This document shows positions 250 through 32,107 of a stretch of 32,713 nt of DNA, piece by piece. The stretch is taken from contig JAFPUM010000057.1 of NCBI GenBank assembly GCA_017395425.1, positions 1-32,713 of the forward strand. Reading direction: 5' to 3'. Each line of letters opens with the position of its first letter. Position 1 is the first letter of the stretch. Origin of the DNA: Clostridia bacterium (GTDB lineage: Bacteria; Bacillota; Clostridia; Oscillospirales; Acutalibacteraceae). The notes under the pieces were generated by a model. It was not told the origin of the DNA. It made no database searches and saw only the letters and a program-made list of their open reading frames with translations. The translations under genes and the position numbers were made by a program.

Positions 250-1476
250 TTAAATAATACAACAAGCCGGGGCAACCCCACGGTTATTGTACGCATAGCT
301 GTTGGCGACACCGCCTGATTCATCAACACTATAGATATAGGCACTGTCCGTGGAGTTCGTGCTTCTTATTCGCCAAGATTGCGTCGTGGGGGGTTCCGTA
401 CCGTTTCTGTACTTGATGCGGTTGCTGTCGGCGCCGGTTCCAGCCGAAGACAGTTTGGAATAATTGGCGTAGTAAGGATAAGGCGCACCCTCATCGACGC
501 CATTCTCCAGACCGCCGTAAACTTCACTTTTCGAAAGCAGGAAAAATGTCTCGGTCGTCGTGTCGGTGGTATTGCTGTCCGGAACTGCCGTTACTTTCGT
601 GACATTGCCGAGAACCGCAAGAAAATCCGCATCCATGCCGTCCACGAAACCGGCGGTATTATTGCCTGTATACCATGTGGGCGGTCTATCGAAATTATTC
701 TGTGCTGTCCAAACGGGGCCTGCAACATTCGACTTGTTCAGCCACTGCCGGATAGCGGATTCCTTGTAGTTATTGGAGCCTTTGTTGACACGATCGATGT
801 CGTTGATGTAATCGGCATTCAGCGGAGTCCCGCCGGAACCGGCTGTCACGGCAATGGTCAGATTATCTGTACCATTTGTGTCTTTAACGAAATCTCCGCC
901 TACTGCGGCACTCACAAAAATGCTTGTCGGCGTATTGCCTGTGAAATTGAGAATTAACTGACTGCCCGCCGCGATACCGTCGCCGGTCACTGTGAACTGA
1001 TAATTCGTCCCATTCGCGGCAAAATAATAGGTTCCGGCTGTCAGCACCGAATGGCAATAATAAAACGCTTCGGGTGCGTCAAACTGCATGGCTGTGGGAA
1101 AACAGTCGTGCAGCTGCAAGGTCAGACTGTGGGTAAACCGTGAGTCGGTGGGCGTATCATGGTCAACGCCGATCACGTCCCATTCCAATTCTACGCCTGA
1201 TCTGTTACAATAAAGTTTATCACCGATGGAAAACATCGTTTTTGCCAATCCGAGCCGCACGATCTGCTGTACCTTTTTCCAGGAATTCGCCAGCAGTAGC
1301 ACGTCTGAACCCATTTCCACCGCCGAAAGCGCTTTCAGCAACATGATTGTGGTATCGGTTTCTTCCCGGAACGCCGCGCCCGATACCGACGCGAGCAGCG
1401 GGGCTTCCAGATGGTCATACGCCGCCTTTGCCTGAGCGAGCGAAGCGGCAACCGCCTGATTGTTATTCGCACTCAA
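250..1476 (-). CDS. DUF6273-like tail-tip/adhesin protein
   Basis: About 408 residues from a TTG start placed 9 nt after GAGGAGG; a more upstream start would read through the preceding gene's tail. The N-terminal 60 residues are Ala-rich and helical. A SWKKVQQIVRLG...WDVIG module follows, shared with the gene at 1-231. The middle is Gly/Thr/Asn-rich, probably beta. Near residue 245 NNYKESAIRQWLN begins a region like the DUF6273 family, with PTWYTGNN and FFLLSKSEVYGG. It ends with SWRIRST, then YAYNNRGVAPACCII. Such domains resemble formylglycine-enzyme/C-type-lectin-like folds used in phage receptor-binding proteins. Its place downstream of the baseplate genes agrees with surface recognition. 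The family call is from memory of motifs. Confidence 0.7.
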   Translation of the reverse strand: MSANNNQAVAASLAQAKAAYDHLEAPLLASVSGAAFREETDTTIMLLKALSAVEMGSDVLLLANSWKKVQQIVRLGLAKTMFSIGDKLYCNRSGVELEWDVIGVDHDTPTDSRFTHSLTLQLHDCFPTAMQFDAPEAFYYCHSVLTAGTYYFAANGTNYQFTVTGDGIAAGSQLILNFTGNTPTSIFVSAAVGGDFVKDTNGTDNLTIAVTAGSGGTPLNADYINDIDRVNKGSNNYKESAIRQWLNKSNVAGPVWTAQNNFDRPPTWYTGNNTAGFVDGMDADFLAVLGNVTKVTAVPDSNTTDTTTETFFLLSKSEVYGGLENGVDEGAPYPYYANYSKLSSAGTGADSNRIKYRNGTEPPTTQSWRIRSTNSTDSAYIYSVDESGGVANSYAYNNRGVAPACCII

Positions 1477-1729
1477 AACCAAACGCCTCCTCAAATTCTT
1501 CATTCGTGGCAATCCGGATGCCAATCTCTACGCCGTTTTCGTCAAGATAGGCATCTACTGCGCCTTGAATATCCTCTGCCGACGGCGTGCCGATATCGTC
1601 CAGCCGTTCGCAGATATCGTTCAGATATTCTTCTTCCCGCGTGAGCGGGGTTTCGGGTTTGCTCACGTTTCCACCTCCCGCGTAGGCAAGATACTGTTCT
1701 TTGCGCGTCAAAGGGTCAATCGCACTCAA
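1463..1729 (-). CDS. Small tail-region protein with LTR(K/E)E repeats
   Basis: Eighty-eight residues from a TTG start 9 nt after GAGGAGG. It contains two copies of one motif: DPLTRKEQYLAYAGG at residues 5-19 and TPLTREEEYLNDICE further on, a pattern seen in short Bacillota phage tail-fibre-associated proteins. The C-terminus IATNEEFEEAFGFECE is almost the same as the C-terminus of the upstream baseplate protein. It overlaps both neighbours by 14 bp in the same way, so translation is likely coupled on both sides. Function is unknown; a linker or assembly factor for the tail tip is possible. Confidence 0.65.
   Translation of the reverse strand: MSAIDPLTRKEQYLAYAGGGNVSKPETPLTREEEYLNDICERLDDIGTPSAEDIQGAVDAYLDENGVEIGIRIATNEEFEEAFGFECE
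1467..1517 (-). repeat. Coding/ribosome-site direct repeat, copy 1
   Basis: A 51-bp sequence identical at 49 positions to 1720-1770. On the minus strand it encodes the IATNEEFEE(A/V)FGFEC C-terminal peptide, includes the GAGGAGG site, and ends with the TTG start of the next gene. Confidence 0.9.
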
Positions 1730-3509: not shown

Positions 3510-4565
3510 TTACTCGACGGCGTATTGCAGCACAGCACCGTCGGCAGTGACGCGCAGGATTTTCCGGGTAATGGTGCGCGTGTCGCCGAAGCCGATAACG
3601 CGATCCTTAATTCCCACGATATCGCCCAGCGGAATGTCAGCATCCGGCGGGTCAAAGTCAATGATAATCGTATTCTGTGCGCCGTGTTCCTTGAGCTTTT
3701 TGCGTGCGTCCTTGATGAGTTCCTTGGCGTTTTCGCAGCTGGAACGGTCGTATACCATCGCTTTTTCACGAAAACCCGTGATATGATTTGTCTGTTGTGC
3801 CAATGTGCTGTTAGTGGTAGTTTTGCCATTGGGCAGCAGCCAGACGTGCCGGACAATGCGGTCAGTACCTTTGCCTTCACCGAGAGCAATGATATGATTG
3901 TATCGGGCTGTCGCCTTGGTTGCGGTGTATTTCATGTCGTAATCGCCGGAAAGCTCAATTTCACTGCTGCGGTTGACCACTTCTTCCGGGGTCAGAATGA
4001 CCTTGTGTGTGCTGCTGTCATAGGTGACACCCAGCCGCAGTCCTCTGTCCACAAGGTTGCCGTTGTCATCTTCATCGTCGCCTGTCAGCAGGTCGGTGAG
4101 CGCGTCAAAGACGGTCGCGTAGCGATATTTTTGTTCCCCGATGTTTCTAAGCCCTTCGGCTGCGTTTGTATCCACCGCGAAGATACCGCCGAATCCGGAA
4201 ACCAGCGACGCCATGATCTGATTGATCATTTGATTGGTGTAGACCTTATGTGTACTTTCCGAAGGCGGCACCACCACCTTGCGGATGAGCAGCCCCCGCC
4301 ACGTGACGCCGGAGAGTTTGACGATTCCGGTGGAACTGATATGCTCGATCTTCTCGACCGCACCGCCCCATTCGGAGCCGTCGAAATAGAGGTAATACCC
4401 GATGTCGATGCCGTACTTTGCAAAATCTTCGGCGTAAATTTCGGCTTCCCAGTCGTTGTCATCCAACTCGCCGTTGACGGAAGCAACACCGTCAAAAGAG
4501 ATGAAATCTAATATCCCCTGTTCCTCAAAATTGCTGTCCGCATACAGCAATTCCCCATAATTCAA
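3510..4565 (-). CDS. Gp37-like tail/baseplate hub protein (Tal-like)
   Basis: 351 residues, starting at TTG after GAGGTGAGCTGAT; no ATG is available near the N-terminus. The protein looks like the siphovirus ReqiPepy6 Gp37-like family: an N-terminal beta-rich region with DDNDWEAEIYAEDFAKYGI and YLYFDGSEWGGAVEKI, a central GVTWRGLLIRKVVVPP, and a C-terminal TRTITRKILRVTADG that recalls XkdQ-type hubs. Members sit between the distal tail protein and the baseplate upper protein, as here, and form the tip of the tail tube. No peptidase motif was seen in it, so the wall-cleaving activity probably rests with the next gene. Confidence 0.75.
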   Translation of the reverse strand: MNYGELLYADSNFEEQGILDFISFDGVASVNGELDDNDWEAEIYAEDFAKYGIDIGYYLYFDGSEWGGAVEKIEHISSTGIVKLSGVTWRGLLIRKVVVPPSESTHKVYTNQMINQIMASLVSGFGGIFAVDTNAAEGLRNIGEQKYRYATVFDALTDLLTGDDEDDNGNLVDRGLRLGVTYDSSTHKVILTPEEVVNRSSEIELSGDYDMKYTATKATARYNHIIALGEGKGTDRIVRHVWLLPNGKTTTNSTLAQQTNHITGFREKAMVYDRSSCENAKELIKDARKKLKEHGAQNTIIIDFDPPDADIPLGDIVGIKDRVIGFGDTRTITRKILRVTADGAVLQYAVE

Positions 4566-4581
4566 ATCAGCTCACCTCACC

Positions 4582-4620
4582 AAAAAATTCCGAATTACGC
4601 ATTCCGAATTCCGAATTAAA
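4582..4620. repeat. Dispersed repeat family B, copy 1 (gene junction)
   Basis: ATTCCGAATTACGCATTCCG-type sequence with ATTCCG units, between the Gp37-like hub gene and the Dit-like gene. The TAA stop of the Dit-like gene lies in it. Related units are at 13063-13146 and 18062-18090. Confidence 0.6.
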
Positions 4621-5485
4621 TTTCATTCCATCGCGGTTCGCTTCGACGCACATGGAATACGACGTCCACCGCGAAGGCGGCGGAACCGTTGCTGTCGGAG
4701 CGGGAGACCGACAGTCGGGAACCAGCGGCATCCGCAAATGTCGGTGCGGGCTGGAAGACGTCGGTGGTTTTATTGCGCAGATTGAAGACGTTCATCCAGA
4801 CGCCGTTCCGACAAGCCCGGATTTTCTTGTTCTGCTGGTCAATCACGACATAATCAGAGGAAGACGACAGCGTAATGTTCACGCCGTATTGGTTACCGCC
4901 CACCGTCACGACGGGATTGACGCAGGAGCCGTAAATCGTGATGGTCATAGGCGTTTCGTCCGCGGAGGAAAGACCGTTTTCCCCGTCAAGGCTTGTGTCG
5001 GGGAAGGTCAGGGAAGCGGTTCCAGCGGCGAGCGTGTGGGAATAATCCTTCGTCCACGCGGGGGAGATGACCTTGAAGGTCAGCCCGACGACCGAATAGG
5101 TTGTCCAGTCGCGGTCTAAGGTTTTGATCGAGACCGCGGCGAAACACTCGATATAATGGTTGTTGATGTAGAGCCGACCGGGCGAAAGGTGACACACGTC
5201 ATAATCGAGGACATCATGCAGACGGTTCAAAGCGGCATTATGCGCCGCCTGCGTGTCGGCGAAAACGTCCAGCACGAGGGACTTGTCCTGCACGGCGCGC
5301 CGGGCAAATACCAGCCGTCCGCCGTCGCGTCGTGCGCGGTCATAGGTTGTCATGCTCCACTGATAATCGAACATCGCGGACGTCTGAATGAGATAGGGCG
5401 CATCCTCCCGCCCGTCAAACCGCAGGATTTCCCCCGCGCTGTTCTGATACAGGCAGGCATAAGGCAGTAAATATTCATCATCCAT
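4616..5485 (-). CDS. Distal tail protein (Dit-like)
   Basis: 289 residues. The ATG at 5485 is chosen because it follows a run of seven G and GTG at workable spacing; longer upstream readings lack a ribosome site. The sequence has the Sipho-tail pattern: SAMFDYQWSMTTYDRARRDG, then VFADTQAAHNAALNRLHDVLD and DWTTYSVVGLTFKVISPAW, followed by a beta-rich galectin-like second half with PMTITIYGSCVNPVVTVGG. It would form the ring joining the tail tube to the baseplate. It follows the tape-measure gene, the canonical order. Its TAA stop falls on the edge of a repeat (4582-4620). Confidence 0.78.
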   Translation of the reverse strand: MDDEYLLPYACLYQNSAGEILRFDGREDAPYLIQTSAMFDYQWSMTTYDRARRDGGRLVFARRAVQDKSLVLDVFADTQAAHNAALNRLHDVLDYDVCHLSPGRLYINNHYIECFAAVSIKTLDRDWTTYSVVGLTFKVISPAWTKDYSHTLAAGTASLTFPDTSLDGENGLSSADETPMTITIYGSCVNPVVTVGGNQYGVNITLSSSSDYVVIDQQNKKIRACRNGVWMNVFNLRNKTTDVFQPAPTFADAAGSRLSVSRSDSNGSAAFAVDVVFHVRRSEPRWNEI

Positions 5486-14065: not shown

Positions 14066-14920
14066 TCATTTCTGAGTGTTAGCTAAGCCCGCGATAATAG
14101 CGCGTTCCCTGTCGCTGAGTTGCCACCGCTCCGCTTTCTCCCGCTCCGCTTTCTCCCGCTCCGCTTTCTCCCGCTCCGCTTTCTCCCGCTCCGCTTTCTC
14201 CCGCTCCGCTTTCTCCCGCTCCGCTTTAACTTCAGCCGAAACGAGCCAGCCACAGCCGAAGATGCTTTTTTTGCTTTCCCGCTGTGAATCCAGCGCTGAC
14301 ACCCGCACGCTCTCCGAACGCGGCACGACAAATTCAATTCCCAGCCGGGCCAAAGGATAGATCGCGGCGACCGTTACCACTTCGGACGGGTAGACGTATT
14401 TCGGCAGTGTCCTGACCTGCTCGCGCCTGTTTTCGTCGTTGGCTTTCTTGACGGCTTCATACAGTGACGGCACGACCCGCACCCGCGTTTCATACGGCTC
14501 CAGATTGGTGACGAATGACGTCTTGATCTCGGCGCCGTTCTCGTAGGTAACGTCCACGCCTACCGGTAAAGCCGTGCATAAATCGGCGCAACGCTGAATA
14601 GAGGACAGCGTCGGAGCAAACAGCAGAAACGGCACACCGCGTTCACAGTAAAACCGGACGATCTGCGACAGTATCGAAAAAGGCGGATTATCCACAACGA
14701 CCTTCCCGCCGCCATAATCAAAATTTTCATAATCTCCACCGGGATAAAACGGACGAACAAAGCAGGATTTATCAACGTGATATTCCTTCGCCGTCCAGTC
14801 CGCGACCGCTTCATAAACCAAAGGCGGCGTGTAGCAGTCATCGGTTGTCAGCTTTGGTTTGAATTTTTCGACAAATCCATCGTAATCTTCAAAAGTTTCT
14901 TTTTTTTGACTGGTTGCTAT
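14066..14920 (-). CDS. Phage adenine-N6 DNA methyltransferase, AUA start, ER/K helix tail
   Basis: 284 residues if begun at ATA (14920), 8 nt after GGGGAGG. This start keeps an N-terminus of the kind usual in these phage enzymes: DYDGFVEKFKPKLTTDDCYT, then PPLVYEAVADW. DNPPF at residues 77-81 is the amino-methyltransferase catalytic motif IV and binds the target adenine with S-adenosylmethionine. The first canonical start (TTG at 14821) would remove 33 residues including TTDDCYTPP. Near the C-terminus six to seven tandem AEREK pentamers form a predicted single alpha-helix before WQLSDRERAII. The target site cannot be told. It is probably a host-restriction shield or packaging mark in the late operon. 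Confidence 0.75.
   Translation of the reverse strand: MATSQKKETFEDYDGFVEKFKPKLTTDDCYTPPLVYEAVADWTAKEYHVDKSCFVRPFYPGGDYENFDYGGGKVVVDNPPFSILSQIVRFYCERGVPFLLFAPTLSSIQRCADLCTALPVGVDVTYENGAEIKTSFVTNLEPYETRVRVVPSLYEAVKKANDENRREQVRTLPKYVYPSEVVTVAAIYPLARLGIEFVVPRSESVRVSALDSQRESKKSIFGCGWLVSAEVKAEREKAEREKAEREKAEREKAEREKAEREKAERWQLSDRERAIIAGLANTQK
14126..14230 (-). repeat. 15-bp tandem repeat encoding AEREK
   Basis: Six perfect units of CCGCTCCGCTTTCTC (plus strand) and a partial seventh in the methyltransferase gene. On the coding strand each unit gives AEREK. Charge pattern (E, R, E, K spaced i to i+4) favours a stable single helix. Copy number may vary by slippage. Confidence 0.92.
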
Positions 14921-14942: not shown

Positions 14943-14976
14943 TAAGAAAAGCCGCCCTGATTGCTCAAAGCGGCTT
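14943..14976 (-). terminator. Intrinsic terminator after the candidate immunity gene
   Basis: On the minus strand: AAGCCGCTTTGA, loop GCAA, TCAGGGCGGCTT, then TTCTTATG. The 12-bp stem has two G-U pairs. It is 14 bp after the 79-residue gene and would limit readthrough into the methyltransferase gene, perhaps partially. Confidence 0.75.
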
Positions 14977-14989
14977 GGTTATTCGGTTG

Positions 14990-15229
14990 TTAGCACCACA
15001 CAATATTTCGTGCCTGTGTTTCAATATCCTTACCAATAAAGCTTTGCAGATACCTTTTCGCATAAGCAATATGATAAGAACACCATTCATAATTTTTTGG
15101 CAATTGATAATCATCAAGTTCAGCGCTTGTTTCATTCAGTGCCAATTGAATCGGTTCTTGACAGTTTTCTACAAAAGCAAGACAAAAGATATATCCATTA
15201 TTTCTTCTTATGTTTTTCAATCTCACCAT
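14990..15229 (-). CDS. Candidate immunity protein for the MuF-linked toxin
   Basis: 79 residues from ATG at 15229, which follows AGGAGG at a 12-nt spacer and lies inside the 3' end of the head-protein gene (32-bp overlap). It reads MVRLKNIRRNNGYIFCLAFV, then YQLPKNYEWCSYHIAYAKRY and ends ARNIVWC. It is acidic to neutral, without membrane segment. It is visibly AT-richer than the head genes, like the toxin-like domain just upstream. A strong terminator (14943-14976) follows. Small cassette genes in this place beside MuF fusions are usually immunity proteins; the assignment is by position, not by fold. Confidence 0.55.
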   Translation of the reverse strand: MVRLKNIRRNNGYIFCLAFVENCQEPIQLALNETSAELDDYQLPKNYEWCSYHIAYAKRYLQSFIGKDIETQARNIVWC

Positions 15230-16628
15230 AATATTCTCGCGCCTCCTTTGAGTAATTATAAACTTCCGATGTGATGTCATGGGCTTCCTTTTGAGACAAA
15301 CCTTGCGCCATCAGTTCTCTTTCCATTTTCTCATGCCTTAACAACGTAATATCATGTAGGAGAATATTTTTCCCATCAATTAGTCGTTGCCATGATTGTG
15401 CCATTAAATAGCTTGCATCAAAGTAATCATATCTACCTTCACCTAGATCATGCTTTTCAAGAAAAACGAAACTCTTAATTGAGTGAATCAAGTCTTCATC
15501 GAATCCTGTGTTCTCGGCAATGCGCCGCACATCGGTAGACATCTTGCGAACAGAAGCATAGTAGCGTTTAGCATGATCCTCAGCTTCATCGCTATCGGGA
15601 TTTAATCCACCTGAAACTATTCTACCACCGTCAGCCGCATTTTTCAAGTCCCAAACCGAAGGAATCTGCCGGTCGTAATTCTGACCATACAGTGCGTTCC
15701 AGCGGTCAAGGCGGGGAACGGATTCCCCGGCAATCCAACGCCCGATCTCGTCGCCGATGACTTCCAGCGATTCCGGGACAACGCCGTACTGGACGCAAAG
15801 GCATTGGGGGTGAGGGAGTGGGATTTCATTGGGCGTCCAGTTGCCCATGCCGAAGCCCTCATCATGTTCGGCGTAATCGTCGCACTCGTCGGGACCGAAT
15901 GGAATCACCTGCCGGAAAAGGTGGGCGTCGCTCAATTCCCAGTGCATGACTTCGACATAAGGATTCTGCACACAAACCTTCTGATTGGCGAGAAAGTAGG
16001 AATGGTTGATAGCCGTCCGCGCCAGACGCTGGGCGTTGTAATCGATTTGTTTTCCGGCGAGATGGGGATAAACCCTCCCCCAATCCCAATCGCGTTTTGC
16101 TTTGGGCTTGACGTACTGTTCCAAATCCTTCGCCAGCTCATAGGCGGATTTGTGTTCCGCGATGCCGCGATTGACCATGTAATCAATGTCATGCTCAAAG
16201 GTCTTGGAAGCCGTCCAGATGCGATCGGATAAACCCTTGTTGTCCTGATAAATCTGCCCGGTGATGAGGTTGGTGAGGATGTCGTCGGGGGTGACGGCGA
16301 ACATGTCGCGGAAGGACTGCCCGCCGACGGCTTCCCAGAAATCCCCGTCCGCGGCAATGGGAAGATTGGCGGAACGTTTCAAGCCCTGATAGGTCACATC
16401 ATACAGCCCGGCACGTAATTCCCGCGCACGCTTGTCCAGCGCGTCGGCGTATTCTGTCGCCCATCGATGAGAGAGCGTGCGCTTCTTCATGGAAGCGGCT
16501 TGTGAGGATAAATCCTTCGCGGCATCCTCGTAGAGCGAGGCGATCTGCCCGGACACCTGCCGGATATTGACCAGATGATCCCGCCGCGCCTGCCGCATCA
16601 AATCTCTGTAATGGGGGTTATTCGCCAT
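15198..16628 (-). CDS. MuF/SPP1 gp7 head protein with toxin-like C-terminal domain
   Basis: 476 residues. Residues 1-195 are helical. Residues 196-290 hold the MuF core: QRLARTAINHSYFLANQK, an ELSDAHLFRQ region, then CDDY and PLPHPQCLCVQYG. After a linker (about 290-345), residues 346-476 form a separate domain: EDHAKRYYASVRKMSTDVRR, ENTGFDEDLIHSIKSFVFLE, FDASYLMAQSWQRLIDGK, LLRHEKMERELMAQGL and EAHD. Conserved-looking polar groups are His432-Glu433, Glu436 and His450. This domain is not needed in plain gp7 proteins and resembles toxin tips of MuF polymorphic toxins delivered with the virion. Its base composition is more AT-rich than the head part. It overlaps the portal gene by 11 bp. Confidence 0.8.
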   Translation of the reverse strand: MANNPHYRDLMRQARRDHLVNIRQVSGQIASLYEDAAKDLSSQAASMKKRTLSHRWATEYADALDKRARELRAGLYDVTYQGLKRSANLPIAADGDFWEAVGGQSFRDMFAVTPDDILTNLITGQIYQDNKGLSDRIWTASKTFEHDIDYMVNRGIAEHKSAYELAKDLEQYVKPKAKRDWDWGRVYPHLAGKQIDYNAQRLARTAINHSYFLANQKVCVQNPYVEVMHWELSDAHLFRQVIPFGPDECDDYAEHDEGFGMGNWTPNEIPLPHPQCLCVQYGVVPESLEVIGDEIGRWIAGESVPRLDRWNALYGQNYDRQIPSVWDLKNAADGGRIVSGGLNPDSDEAEDHAKRYYASVRKMSTDVRRIAENTGFDEDLIHSIKSFVFLEKHDLGEGRYDYFDASYLMAQSWQRLIDGKNILLHDITLLRHEKMERELMAQGLSQKEAHDITSEVYNYSKEAREYYGEIEKHKKK

Positions 16629-18045
16629 CCGGCATCAGCTCGCTTTCTGCGGCTGAAATAAAACTGTCGGAAAACAGCGTCTCTTCCTTCTTGATCTGAA
16701 GCAACTCGGCGTCTGCGTCGGGAGCGGTGCCCCATTTTTCGATGTAGGATTTGCGCGAACGAACCTGACGGGAAACTTCCTGCATGTCGTTTGCCATCTC
16801 GTCAAAATCGTCCTCGAGAATGGGATAGAGCGATTCGACGTTTACCGTCAGCGCGTCCTCGTCGTAGGCGAAACCGTGATAAATGGATTCCATTTTCAGT
16901 ACGGCAAACGCCATCCATTCGAGTGCCGGACGCCAGCTTGCCCACTTGCCCTCGCAACGGGAGATGAGTTCCCAGTAGAGCGCCTTCATACTCTTGCCGG
17001 ACTGCATCAGCCCGCGGAGCTGTTCCAGCCCGACGTTGGGAACGCTGAGCAGGTCAAACATATCGTTCTTGGTGCGGGTGATAGCTGCCTCGAACCGTTC
17101 GGAATAACTGAACCCGGCTTCGAGCTTGTCAAGCCGAGCCTGACCGCCCTCTTTGGCTGGGTTGGCGGGGTCGGTCTGTAAATCAATCAGCGCGCCGGGA
17201 GAGATTTTCATTGCGTCGAGCGATTCCGCTTTGGCGTCCACAGCGACGGTCTGGGGGAACATATTGAACCGGAGCGCGTCGGCGTCGTCGGAGAGAAGAT
17301 GGTTGTAGCTGTTCTGGAGCTCAATGAGGTCTTCCACGTCGCTTTCGCCCTTCATATCGCCGGATAACCCGCCGTTGAGAATGACACAGCAGGGGATGAA
17401 ATCCAGCCCGGTGTCCACATCCTGCCCGCCTTCCAGCAACTGCCCGAACCCGTTGTATACGCCCTCATTCAGCCAGCACCGACCGTTTTCCAGCCAATAT
17501 TTCTGTTTCCATAGCCGCTGATCAGCGCGATTCTGTTCGTCATTGATCTGATAGAAGAAGATGATTTTGTCGAGAATGTCGCAATCGTCGTCGGTGACGG
17601 AATAGACGAATTCGGGGGACGGACGGAAGGAAACGCGGACAGGTTTGTCCTTGCCGCCGCTGATTTTGAGCGCGACGCGCTTGCCGATGAAGCAATCCAG
17701 CCCCGCCTGCATGAGCTTGTTGTTCCAGCGGGAACGTTTTAACGCGCCATCCAAAAACCTCTGTGCTTTGTCAACGGTTTCAGCAGACGCCTCGCGGTCA
17801 GAATCGAAGGTAATCTCCGGCGCACGCCCGAACATGAATTCCGCTTCCCGTTTGATGAGCTTTTTGACGAGGTTGACGCGCTTCTTGGTGGGACGGTAAT
17901 CCAATCCCTGCGGCAGCTCCCAATCCTGCCCCTTGCCGTCATAAAAATCGTAAAGCCGGATGATCTGACCAATGTCCTTCAGTACGGTTTGCCCGTAAAG
18001 CCCGGACATCTCCGCCAATAAAATACGCATAGGCGATTCCGTCAA
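16618..18045 (-). CDS. Portal protein (SPP1 gp6-like)
   Basis: 475 residues. The TTG start at 18045 has AGGGAG nine bases upstream; an ATG at 18030 lacks one. Recognisable stretches are YDFYDGKGQDWELPQGLDYR, VNLVKKLIKREAEFMFGR, the LIELQNSYNHLLSDDADALR stem helix, and FSYSERFEAAITRTKNDMFD with SVPNVGLEQLRGLMQSGKSM. These are typical of the SPP1 gp6 portal family. It forms the dodecameric channel for DNA entry and joins terminase and neck. It lies between the large terminase and the MuF protein, the standard order. The C-terminal residues overlap the next start. Confidence 0.9.
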   Translation of the reverse strand: MTESPMRILLAEMSGLYGQTVLKDIGQIIRLYDFYDGKGQDWELPQGLDYRPTKKRVNLVKKLIKREAEFMFGRAPEITFDSDREASAETVDKAQRFLDGALKRSRWNNKLMQAGLDCFIGKRVALKISGGKDKPVRVSFRPSPEFVYSVTDDDCDILDKIIFFYQINDEQNRADQRLWKQKYWLENGRCWLNEGVYNGFGQLLEGGQDVDTGLDFIPCCVILNGGLSGDMKGESDVEDLIELQNSYNHLLSDDADALRFNMFPQTVAVDAKAESLDAMKISPGALIDLQTDPANPAKEGGQARLDKLEAGFSYSERFEAAITRTKNDMFDLLSVPNVGLEQLRGLMQSGKSMKALYWELISRCEGKWASWRPALEWMAFAVLKMESIYHGFAYDEDALTVNVESLYPILEDDFDEMANDMQEVSRQVRSRKSYIEKWGTAPDADAELLQIKKEETLFSDSFISAAESELMPDGE

Positions 18046-31720: not shown

Positions 31721-32107
31721 ATGTCAAGAGAATATATTGCAAGCGTATTAAAGCGCCTAAGAGAGGCAAGCGGATTAACAGCTGATCAGGTCGGGGAAAT
31801 GGTTGGTAAAAGTGGTAAAACCGTAAATGCCTGGGAGAATAACAGAGGTCAGCCAGACGCCGAAATACTAATGCTACTTTGTGAGATTTATAGAGTAGAA
31901 GATATCCTTGCTACTTTTAAGGAAGGATACATAACAAAAAAAGCCCCCGCGATAAGCGGGAGCGATATCCAGAAGCAGAGGCTGATGGAGAATTATGAGA
32001 AGCTGAACCCGTTGGGTCAGGAGAAGCTGGTAGATTATTCCGAGGATTTGACTGAGGTTGAAAAATATACGCAGACCGAGGCTGTATTTAGTGCCAAAGA
32101 AGCCTAA
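31721..32107 (+). CDS. CI-like XRE-family repressor
   Basis: 128 residues, the only complete rightward gene. ATG follows CAGGTGGGGTTATGAT. The helix-turn-helix occupies residues 5-60 (LKRLREASGLTADQVGEMVG, then KSGKTVNAWENNRGQP). After a linker there is a helical stretch KQRLMENYEKLNPLGQEKLV, typical of short clostridial prophage repressors that lack a peptidase domain. It should keep lysogeny by blocking the leftward promoter. No RecA-type autocleavage domain is seen, so induction probably needs another route. The linker codons hold a hairpin for the opposite strand. Confidence 0.85.
   Translation: MSREYIASVLKRLREASGLTADQVGEMVGKSGKTVNAWENNRGQPDAEILMLLCEIYRVEDILATFKEGYITKKAPAISGSDIQKQRLMENYEKLNPLGQEKLVDYSEDLTEVEKYTQTEAVFSAKEA
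31935..31963 (-). terminator. Terminator for leftward transcription inside the repressor gene
   Basis: Minus strand: GCTCCCGC, loop TTATC, GCGGGGGC, then T7. It is inside the linker codons of the rightward repressor gene and points against it. Confidence 0.7.

What the first reader, a model, noticed from the sequence alone, without database searches (positions are those of the whole stretch)
14990..15593. Virion-borne toxin-like domain on the MuF head protein with overlapping candidate immunity gene
Seen: residues 346-476 of the SPP1 gp7-like protein form an extra domain beyond the MuF core, with LLRHEKMERELM and EAHD groups. The DNA for it and for the 79-codon gene that overlaps its end by 32 bp is visibly more AT-rich than the head genes around, and a strong terminator closes the pair. 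Known: MuF polymorphic toxins of temperate phages have this layout. Inference: the domain is an exchangeable effector injected with DNA, and the small gene protects the lysogen. I could not name the toxin family; the HExxE...H pattern could hint at a metal-dependent enzyme.
Basis: partly seen in the sequence, partly recalled or inferred. Interest (0 to 1): 0.72.

Follow-up and report, generated by a model that had tools for sequence, protein, structure and literature searches.

The report
Phage head protein carrying swappable toxin
A bacterial virus carries, at the end of one of its head proteins, an exchangeable domain that looks like an antibacterial toxin of an unnamed family, followed by a small gene that very probably protects the carrier from it.

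Summary
The MuF/gp7-like head protein (16628-15198, minus strand) ends in an AT-rich domain (residues 346-476), and a 79-codon gene overlaps it by 32 bp. The domain reaches no curated cut-off in Pfam or NCBIfam. It nevertheless behaves as an exchangeable module. It occurs on head or portal proteins of six PHROG families, and outside phage heads on WXG100 proteins, a pre-toxin-TG protein and a CdiA-like haemagglutinin-repeat protein. Y12, W68 and an HExxE...H signature (H87, E88, E91, H105 of the domain) are invariant in 22 diverse copies. The adjacent small gene is homologous in 47 of 47 distinct loci tested. Between two related phages, domain and small gene are replaced as one block, with 83-86% DNA identity on both sides. 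Nine of ten genome relatives of the MuF core carry other C-termini. Most likely this is a MuF polymorphic toxin with its immunity gene; the toxin is an unnamed, probably metal-dependent enzyme. Toxicity, packaging, injection, neutralisation and catalysis are inferred. The kind of system is known; the toxin domain appears new.

The parts
15594..16628 (-). MuF/gp7-like head part, residues 1-345: predicted delivery part
   Evidence: phrog_1657 head morphogenesis, residues 6-317, E 3.6e-66; directly after the portal gene 18045-16618 (PF05133 E 2e-28). The Pfam model of Phage_Mu_F was not among the matches at E <= 10
15198..15593 (-). Exchangeable C-terminal effector domain, residues 346-476, with stop codon
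   Evidence: AT-rich; relatives in 35 viral, 28 genome and 3 plasmid loci and 14 significant phage records; alignments A1, A2, A5
15321..15335 (-). HExxE (H432-E433-x-x-E436 of the protein; H87, E88, E91 of the domain)
   Evidence: invariant in 45 close and 22 diverse copies; codons checked
15279..15281 (-). distal His (H450 of the protein; H105 of the domain), in EAHD
   Evidence: invariant in 45 close and 22 diverse copies; codon checked
14990..15229 (-). Candidate immunity gene, 79 codons, overlaps the toxin by 32 bp
   Evidence: adjacent ORF is the best leave-one-out HMM hit in 47 of 47 loci; ribosome site
14949..14976 (-). Terminator-like stem-loop closing the pair
   Evidence: 12 pairs; folding z -2.25; such sites are not more frequent than in shuffles
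16618..18045 (-). Portal protein (context)
   Evidence: PF05133 SPP1_portal E 2e-28

Best explanation
This is a MuF-type polymorphic toxin of a probably temperate phage. The conserved head part is expected to place a few copies in the virion at the portal. The AT-rich C-terminal 115-130 residues are an exchangeable effector domain that enters the recipient and acts in its cytoplasm. The overlapping 79-aa gene encodes a cognate cytoplasmic immunity protein that protects the producing or lysogenic cell, and the two travel as one cassette. The effector is most likely a metal-dependent enzyme using H87, E88, E91 and H105, with Y12, R16 and W68 also important; I slightly favour a nucleic-acid hydrolase over a peptidase. 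Shown by sequence: domain borders, exchange, linkage, homology to non-phage toxin-type proteins, invariant residues. Inferred: packaging, injection, toxicity, neutralisation, metal chemistry.
For: Block replacement of domain plus small gene between L109 and L123: 82.7% DNA identity over L109 2984-4001 and 85.6% over 4689-4881, nothing aligned between, where the domain (4039-4431) and small gene (4403-4648) lie. Nine of ten core relatives have other C-termini, and in all ten the C-terminus is more AT-rich than the core. Adjacent small ORF homologous in 47 of 47 loci, E 4.2e-27 to 4.2e-6. Domain on WXG100 proteins, a pre-toxin-TG protein and a haemagglutinin-repeat protein. Domain and partner vary together: Mantel r 0.59, 0 of 5000 permutations. 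Eight loci have an interrupted or truncated domain with an intact small gene. Published MuF toxins have the same layout.
Against: No experiment. No named toxin family matches. Pfam's MuF model is not matched. The small-protein HMM also hits 18 of 391 genomes that have no hit to the toxin HMM, some of these weak or inside long frames. The haemagglutinin-repeat homologue has no hit to that HMM nearby, and the WXG100-type relatives have other, larger downstream genes. Temperate lifestyle rests on two repressor-like ORFs recognised by eye; I saw no integrase on the contig.
Confidence: 0.8

Rival explanations
1. The domain is an injected effector, but it serves the phage's own infection (lysogeny decision, host take-over, exclusion of rival phages) rather than killing of competitor bacteria; the small protein tunes or ends its action.
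For: Location in the packaging module; Jamet et al. themselves propose influence on the lysogeny decision beside a weapon role (abstract); Iyer et al. describe MuF-linked effectors of infection (passages).
Against: The same domain on WXG100, pre-toxin-TG and haemagglutinin-repeat proteins has no phage to serve. This rival shares the toxin-immunity core with the best explanation.
Confidence: 0.25
2. The domain is a zincin-type metallopeptidase, in which HExxE plus the distal His replaces HExxH plus a distal Glu.
For: H and E four residues apart with a second E next to the H, and a distal invariant H; Jamet et al. report metallopeptidase domains in 20% of 191 putative MuF toxins.
Against: HExxH is absent in the aligned copies, which have E at that place; no peptidase match in Pfam or PDB sequences; a crude propensity profile looks mainly helical, whereas zincins need a sheet (recalled).
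Confidence: 0.25
3. An ordinary toxin-antitoxin pair that acts only inside the cell that makes it, merely parked on a head gene.
For: Small overlapping partner; toxin never seen without a neighbour in the 47 loci tested.
Against: The toxin is the C-terminus of delivery-type proteins in the carriers examined: head or portal proteins, WXG100, haemagglutinin repeats.
Confidence: 0.07
4. A structural extension of the head protein with no effector role.
For: It is part of a head protein; many MuF C-terminal extensions have no known domain.
Against: Exchange with unrelated C-termini, occurrence on unrelated carriers, invariant polar residues, linked partner gene.
Confidence: 0.03

Closest known systems
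MuF polymorphic toxins (Jamet et al. 2017, PMC5576092; abstract and Results section read)
   Same: Head protein coded next to the portal, exchangeable C-terminal extension, small ORF downstream, Firmicutes hosts.
   Different: This C-terminal domain has no named family and an HExxE...H signature; the supplementary toxin tables of the paper were not available, so I cannot tell whether it is listed there as unknown.
Apk2 toxins of MuF type (PMC12226406, passages) and Bxa (PMC11699363, passages)
   Same: MuF head part, C-terminal toxin, adjacent immunity genes; shown toxic and neutralised in those papers.
   Different: Their domains are an adenosine 3'-pyrophosphokinase and an ADP-ribosyltransferase; no sequence relation to this domain was seen in the family scans.
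WXG100 (type VII) and pre-toxin-TG polymorphic toxins
   Same: Relatives of this domain form the C-terminus of WXG100 proteins L097 and L099 and of a Priestia filamentosa pre-toxin-TG protein followed by an 83-aa gene.
   Different: The delivery part is unrelated to a phage head; WXG100-type relatives have larger downstream genes (162-186 aa) without significant match to the small-protein HMM.
CdiA-type haemagglutinin-repeat toxins
   Same: A Rhizobium hidalgonense haemagglutinin-repeat protein ends in the domain (37.3%, E 3e-7).
   Different: Different delivery part; no hit to the small-protein HMM near it.

Membership tests
MuF polymorphic toxins | MuF-superfamily head part | tested here: met
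   phrog_1657 head morphogenesis E 3.6e-66 and other head PHROGs
MuF polymorphic toxins | Match to Pfam's own Phage_Mu_F model (PF04233 in Jamet et al.) | tested here: not met
   not listed at E <= 10; Jamet et al. extend the family to MuF3 and MuF4, which those models missed, so this does not exclude membership
MuF polymorphic toxins | Gene next to the portal gene in the packaging module | tested here: met
   portal 18045-16618 directly upstream
MuF polymorphic toxins | C-terminal domain shared with other polymorphic toxin classes | tested here: met
   WXG100 proteins, pre-toxin-TG and haemagglutinin-repeat proteins
MuF polymorphic toxins | Small ORF under 150 aa directly downstream | tested here: met
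   79 codons, homologous in 47 of 47 loci
MuF polymorphic toxins | Temperate phage or prophage | tested here: inconclusive
   divergent repressor-like ORFs at 31584-31312 (-) and 31721-32107 (+), recognised by eye; no integrase seen by eye, no model search made for one; contig ends at 32713
MuF polymorphic toxins | Toxicity and neutralisation by the neighbour | not testable with these tools
   needs expression tests
MuF polymorphic toxins | Presence in the virion and delivery | not testable with these tools
   needs virion proteomics and infection tests
Zincin metallopeptidase toxins | HExxH motif | tested here: not met
   E, not H, at the last place, invariant in 45 close and 22 diverse copies
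Zincin metallopeptidase toxins | Zincin fold | not testable with these tools
Any toxin family with a curated Pfam or NCBIfam model | Score above the curated cut-off | tested here: not met
   window domain: none above cut-off; 26 members against Pfam and 45 against NCBIfam: only scattered weak matches, at most 5 members per family, best E 0.0013

The most novel reading that the evidence does not exclude
The domain founds an undescribed enzyme superfamily with a rearranged metal site (HExxE...H instead of HExxH...E). It is used as an interchangeable warhead by phage heads, portal proteins, type VII effectors, CdiA-like exoproteins and a hub/VgrG-like protein, and one immunity family is shared between phage and type VII versions.
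Probability: 0.5. Interest if true: 0.65.

Novelty: new member of a known kind. Interest (0 to 1): 0.5.

Why it matters
Few MuF toxins have been tested; the papers seen in passages treat Apk2 and Bxa. This cassette is compact, recurs in phages of gut and rumen Clostridia and of Streptococcus, and gives sharp predictions: six invariant residues and one small immunity gene. It is a practical test case for whether phage particles deliver antibacterial toxins, and any activity found would at once explain relatives on type VII and CdiA-like proteins.

Tried and rejected
Family libraries and solved-structure sequences gave no named match for the domain or the small protein. Weak matches were scattered over unrelated families. 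The one repeated phage family, phrog_33810 (unknown function), matches 4 of 45 members with best E 9.2e-6.

A viral-contig search with the MuF core gave only 2 loci, so genomes were used. Zhang et al. 2012 (PMC3482391, passages only): no toxin with this signature in the passages seen; its Ntox28 motif [DN]HxxE has another spacing. Papers: searches listed nothing that names this domain (listings only, beyond the papers cited); supplementary files could not be read. tRNA scan: none.

Weak genome hits were set aside as probable chance: G107, G319, G345 and G532, E 6e-4 to 0.006. Two of them lie in long ORFs whose sequence is unlike a toxin (L101, L102). In small local ORF sets these proteins still score about 4e-5, so local domain scores of that size prove nothing alone. 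The local small-protein matches near the Priestia gene and in G164 (E 2e-4 each) are likewise weak. A purely structural extension was rejected because of exchange and non-phage carriers.

Full report
Observation. The MuF/gp7-like ORF (16628-15198, minus strand, 476 aa) follows an SPP1-type portal (PF05133 E 2e-28). It matches phrog_1657 'head morphogenesis' over residues 6-317 (E 3.6e-66); residues 346-476 lie outside that match. The 79-codon ORF 15229-14990 overlaps by 32 bp and has its own ribosome site. GC is 0.558 in the core, 0.391 in the domain and 0.333 in the small gene. A 12-pair terminator-like stem follows (folding z -2.25), although such sites are no more frequent than in shuffles.

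Relatives. tblastn with the domain gave 35 IMG/VR loci. In the phage collection it gave 15 records at E <= 10, of which 14 are significant (13 Streptococcus, 1 Staphylococcus) and one, at E = 9, is not. One of the 14, phage Clyde, is recorded as an induced prophage. One-per-species genomes gave 28 loci, mostly Clostridia; 98 related genomes gave 3 including the window's own; plasmids gave 3 records. An HMM of 45 copies hit 15 of 391 genomes of the class and 7 of 398 of the phylum at E <= 0.01, each count including the own genome; the weakest are probable chance.

Exchange. The MuF core without the domain matched 11 places in 9 of 398 family genomes, own included. Of the other ten places, G007 has the same domain and nine have other C-termini without a significant hit to the domain HMM. 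In all ten the C-terminus is more AT-rich than the core. Of two viral contigs with the core, L109 has the domain and L110 does not. L109 and the genome locus L123 align at 82.7% over L109 2984-4001 and at 85.6% over 4689-4881. Nothing aligns from 4002 to 4688, where L109 has the domain (4039-4431) and the small gene (4403-4648) and L123 has another C-terminus and another small ORF. That is replacement of a cassette.

Carriers. Eleven full-length head-type carriers, the window's included, were scanned with PHROGs. Their best matches fall in six families: phrog_1657, 115, 2494 and 581 (head or minor head) and 15528 and 12 (portal). Outside heads the domain ends WXG100 proteins L097 and L099 (PF06013 E 5.1e-14 and 4.1e-11). 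It also ends L098, whose N-terminus resembles a baseplate hub or VgrG only below the cut-offs, and a 3753-aa ORF, L094. Named homologues are a Priestia filamentosa 'pre-toxin TG domain-containing protein' (39.8%, E 2e-9) and a Rhizobium hidalgonense 'hemagglutinin repeat-containing protein' (37.3%, E 3e-7). A shorter variant (L095, L096, and L100 on a WXG100 protein) shares only the second half with the HExxE...AH motif. A search with the WXG100-type domain hit 23 of 197 genomes of that family.

Immunity candidate. One search was given 65 loci (L061 and L067 were left out). Five were skipped because the domain is interrupted; the other 60 all had a fitting ORF, and 10 of these are exact duplicates. 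For 47 distinct members (the window and 46 loci; the four annotated phage loci were not among them) an HMM was built without the locus and without any sequence 40% or more identical. The adjacent ORF was the best hit among all frames of 50 codons or more in 47 of 47, E 4.2e-27 to 4.2e-6. The members had first been picked by position, with a preference for a C-terminal W-Y/G-like ending, so they were not chosen blindly. Three of the four phage loci (L039, L041, L042) hit clearly (E 1e-11 or better) and L040 weakly (2e-4). A ribosome-site-like motif, by a permissive test, precedes 39 of 46. Over 45 loci mean pairwise identity is 0.51 for the domain and 0.25 for the partner, and the two matrices correlate (Mantel r 0.59, 0 of 5000 permutations). 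L022 has two tandem partners. In 8 loci (L035, L036, L047, L048, L067, L070, L103, L164) the domain is interrupted or truncated and a small gene is present (weak scores for L103, 6e-4 and 0.004, and for L164, 3e-5). Assembly errors are possible.

Results against strict pairing. The small-protein HMM hit 27 of 391 class genomes. In 9 it lies next to a strong domain hit, and a tenth domain genome, G164, shows a weak match only in a local search (E 2e-4). The other 18 have no hit to the domain HMM. They include an orphan of about 83 aa (L169), a longer version of 109-135 codons in several chromosomes, and weak matches inside long frames. They may be orphan immunity genes or the source family. The haemagglutinin-repeat homologue has no hit nearby. 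The seven relatives L094-L100 have downstream genes of 162-186 aa that do not match significantly (best 0.02, L095 and L096).

Active site. In 45 close copies A8, Y12, I25, M64, S67, W68, Q69, R70, L71, D81, H87, E88, E91 and H105 are invariant. In 22 diverse copies, non-phage ones included, Y12, W68, H87, E88, E91 and H105 remain; in 12 copies including two of the short variant, H87, E88, E91 and H105 remain. HExxE with a distal His suits a metal site; that is inference. A crude propensity profile suggests a mainly helical domain and a mixed small protein, which is weak evidence. I saw no obvious signal or membrane segment by eye and so expect a cytoplasmic target.

Literature. Jamet et al. 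2017 (abstract and Results read) define this layout. They report a small ORF after 89.4% of 191 MuF toxin genes and after 25.5% of 952 short muf genes, and many extensions without known domains. Apk2 (PMC12226406) and Bxa (PMC11699363), passages only, show that MuF C-termini can be toxic and neutralised by neighbours. Iyer et al. (PMC5512222, passages) describe effector domains on MuF and portal proteins. No listing in searches or 81 named this domain.

Verdict. This is a MuF polymorphic toxin whose toxin domain has no curated family, with an unusual HExxE...H signature and a tightly linked immunity candidate. The kind of system is known; the domain appears unnamed. Toxicity, packaging and chemistry await experiment.

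Noticed in passing
window 14821-14066 (-), repeats at about 14118-14226: ORF with a VVDNPPFS stretch, recalled as methyltransferase-like, and about seven tandem copies of an EREKAER unit; a similar ORF follows the cassette in L003.
   Followed up: no
window 31584-31312 (-) and 31721-32107 (+): Divergent pair of small ORFs that look by eye like Cro-type and CI-type repressors: a possible lysogeny switch. No integrase seen on the contig.
   Followed up: no
window 15647-15619 (-): Promoter-like site (10 of 12, extended -10) just upstream of the cassette inside the muf gene; 6 promoter-like sites found against a mean of 2.3 in shuffles. It could drive the immunity gene separately.
   Followed up: no
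L056 2517-5381 (955 aa), same protein in L024 and L025: Portal protein, NUDIX-like stretch (phrog_1198, residues 612-741) and toxin domain in one polypeptide.
   Followed up: partly
L013 1648-3390 (581 aa): Toxin domain at the end of a protein whose best match is a portal family (phrog_12, residues 48-490).
   Followed up: partly
L169, L174, L175, L177-L184: Homologues of the small protein away from any domain hit, about 83 aa in L169 and 109-135 codons in several others: possible orphan immunity genes or source family.
   Followed up: partly
L123-L131, C-termini after the MuF core: Other C-termini on related head proteins. By eye (recalled motifs) they include metallopeptidase-like, ADP-ribosyltransferase-like, papain-like and JAB-like ones, each with its own downstream ORFs; no family scan was made.
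   Followed up: no
L022 3353-3872: Two tandem small genes after one domain; L021 has an identical domain and only one.
   Followed up: partly
window 250-1524 (-): Tail-end protein with a C-terminus that looks by eye like a variable receptor-binding domain; a second, partial one lies at the contig edge.
   Followed up: no
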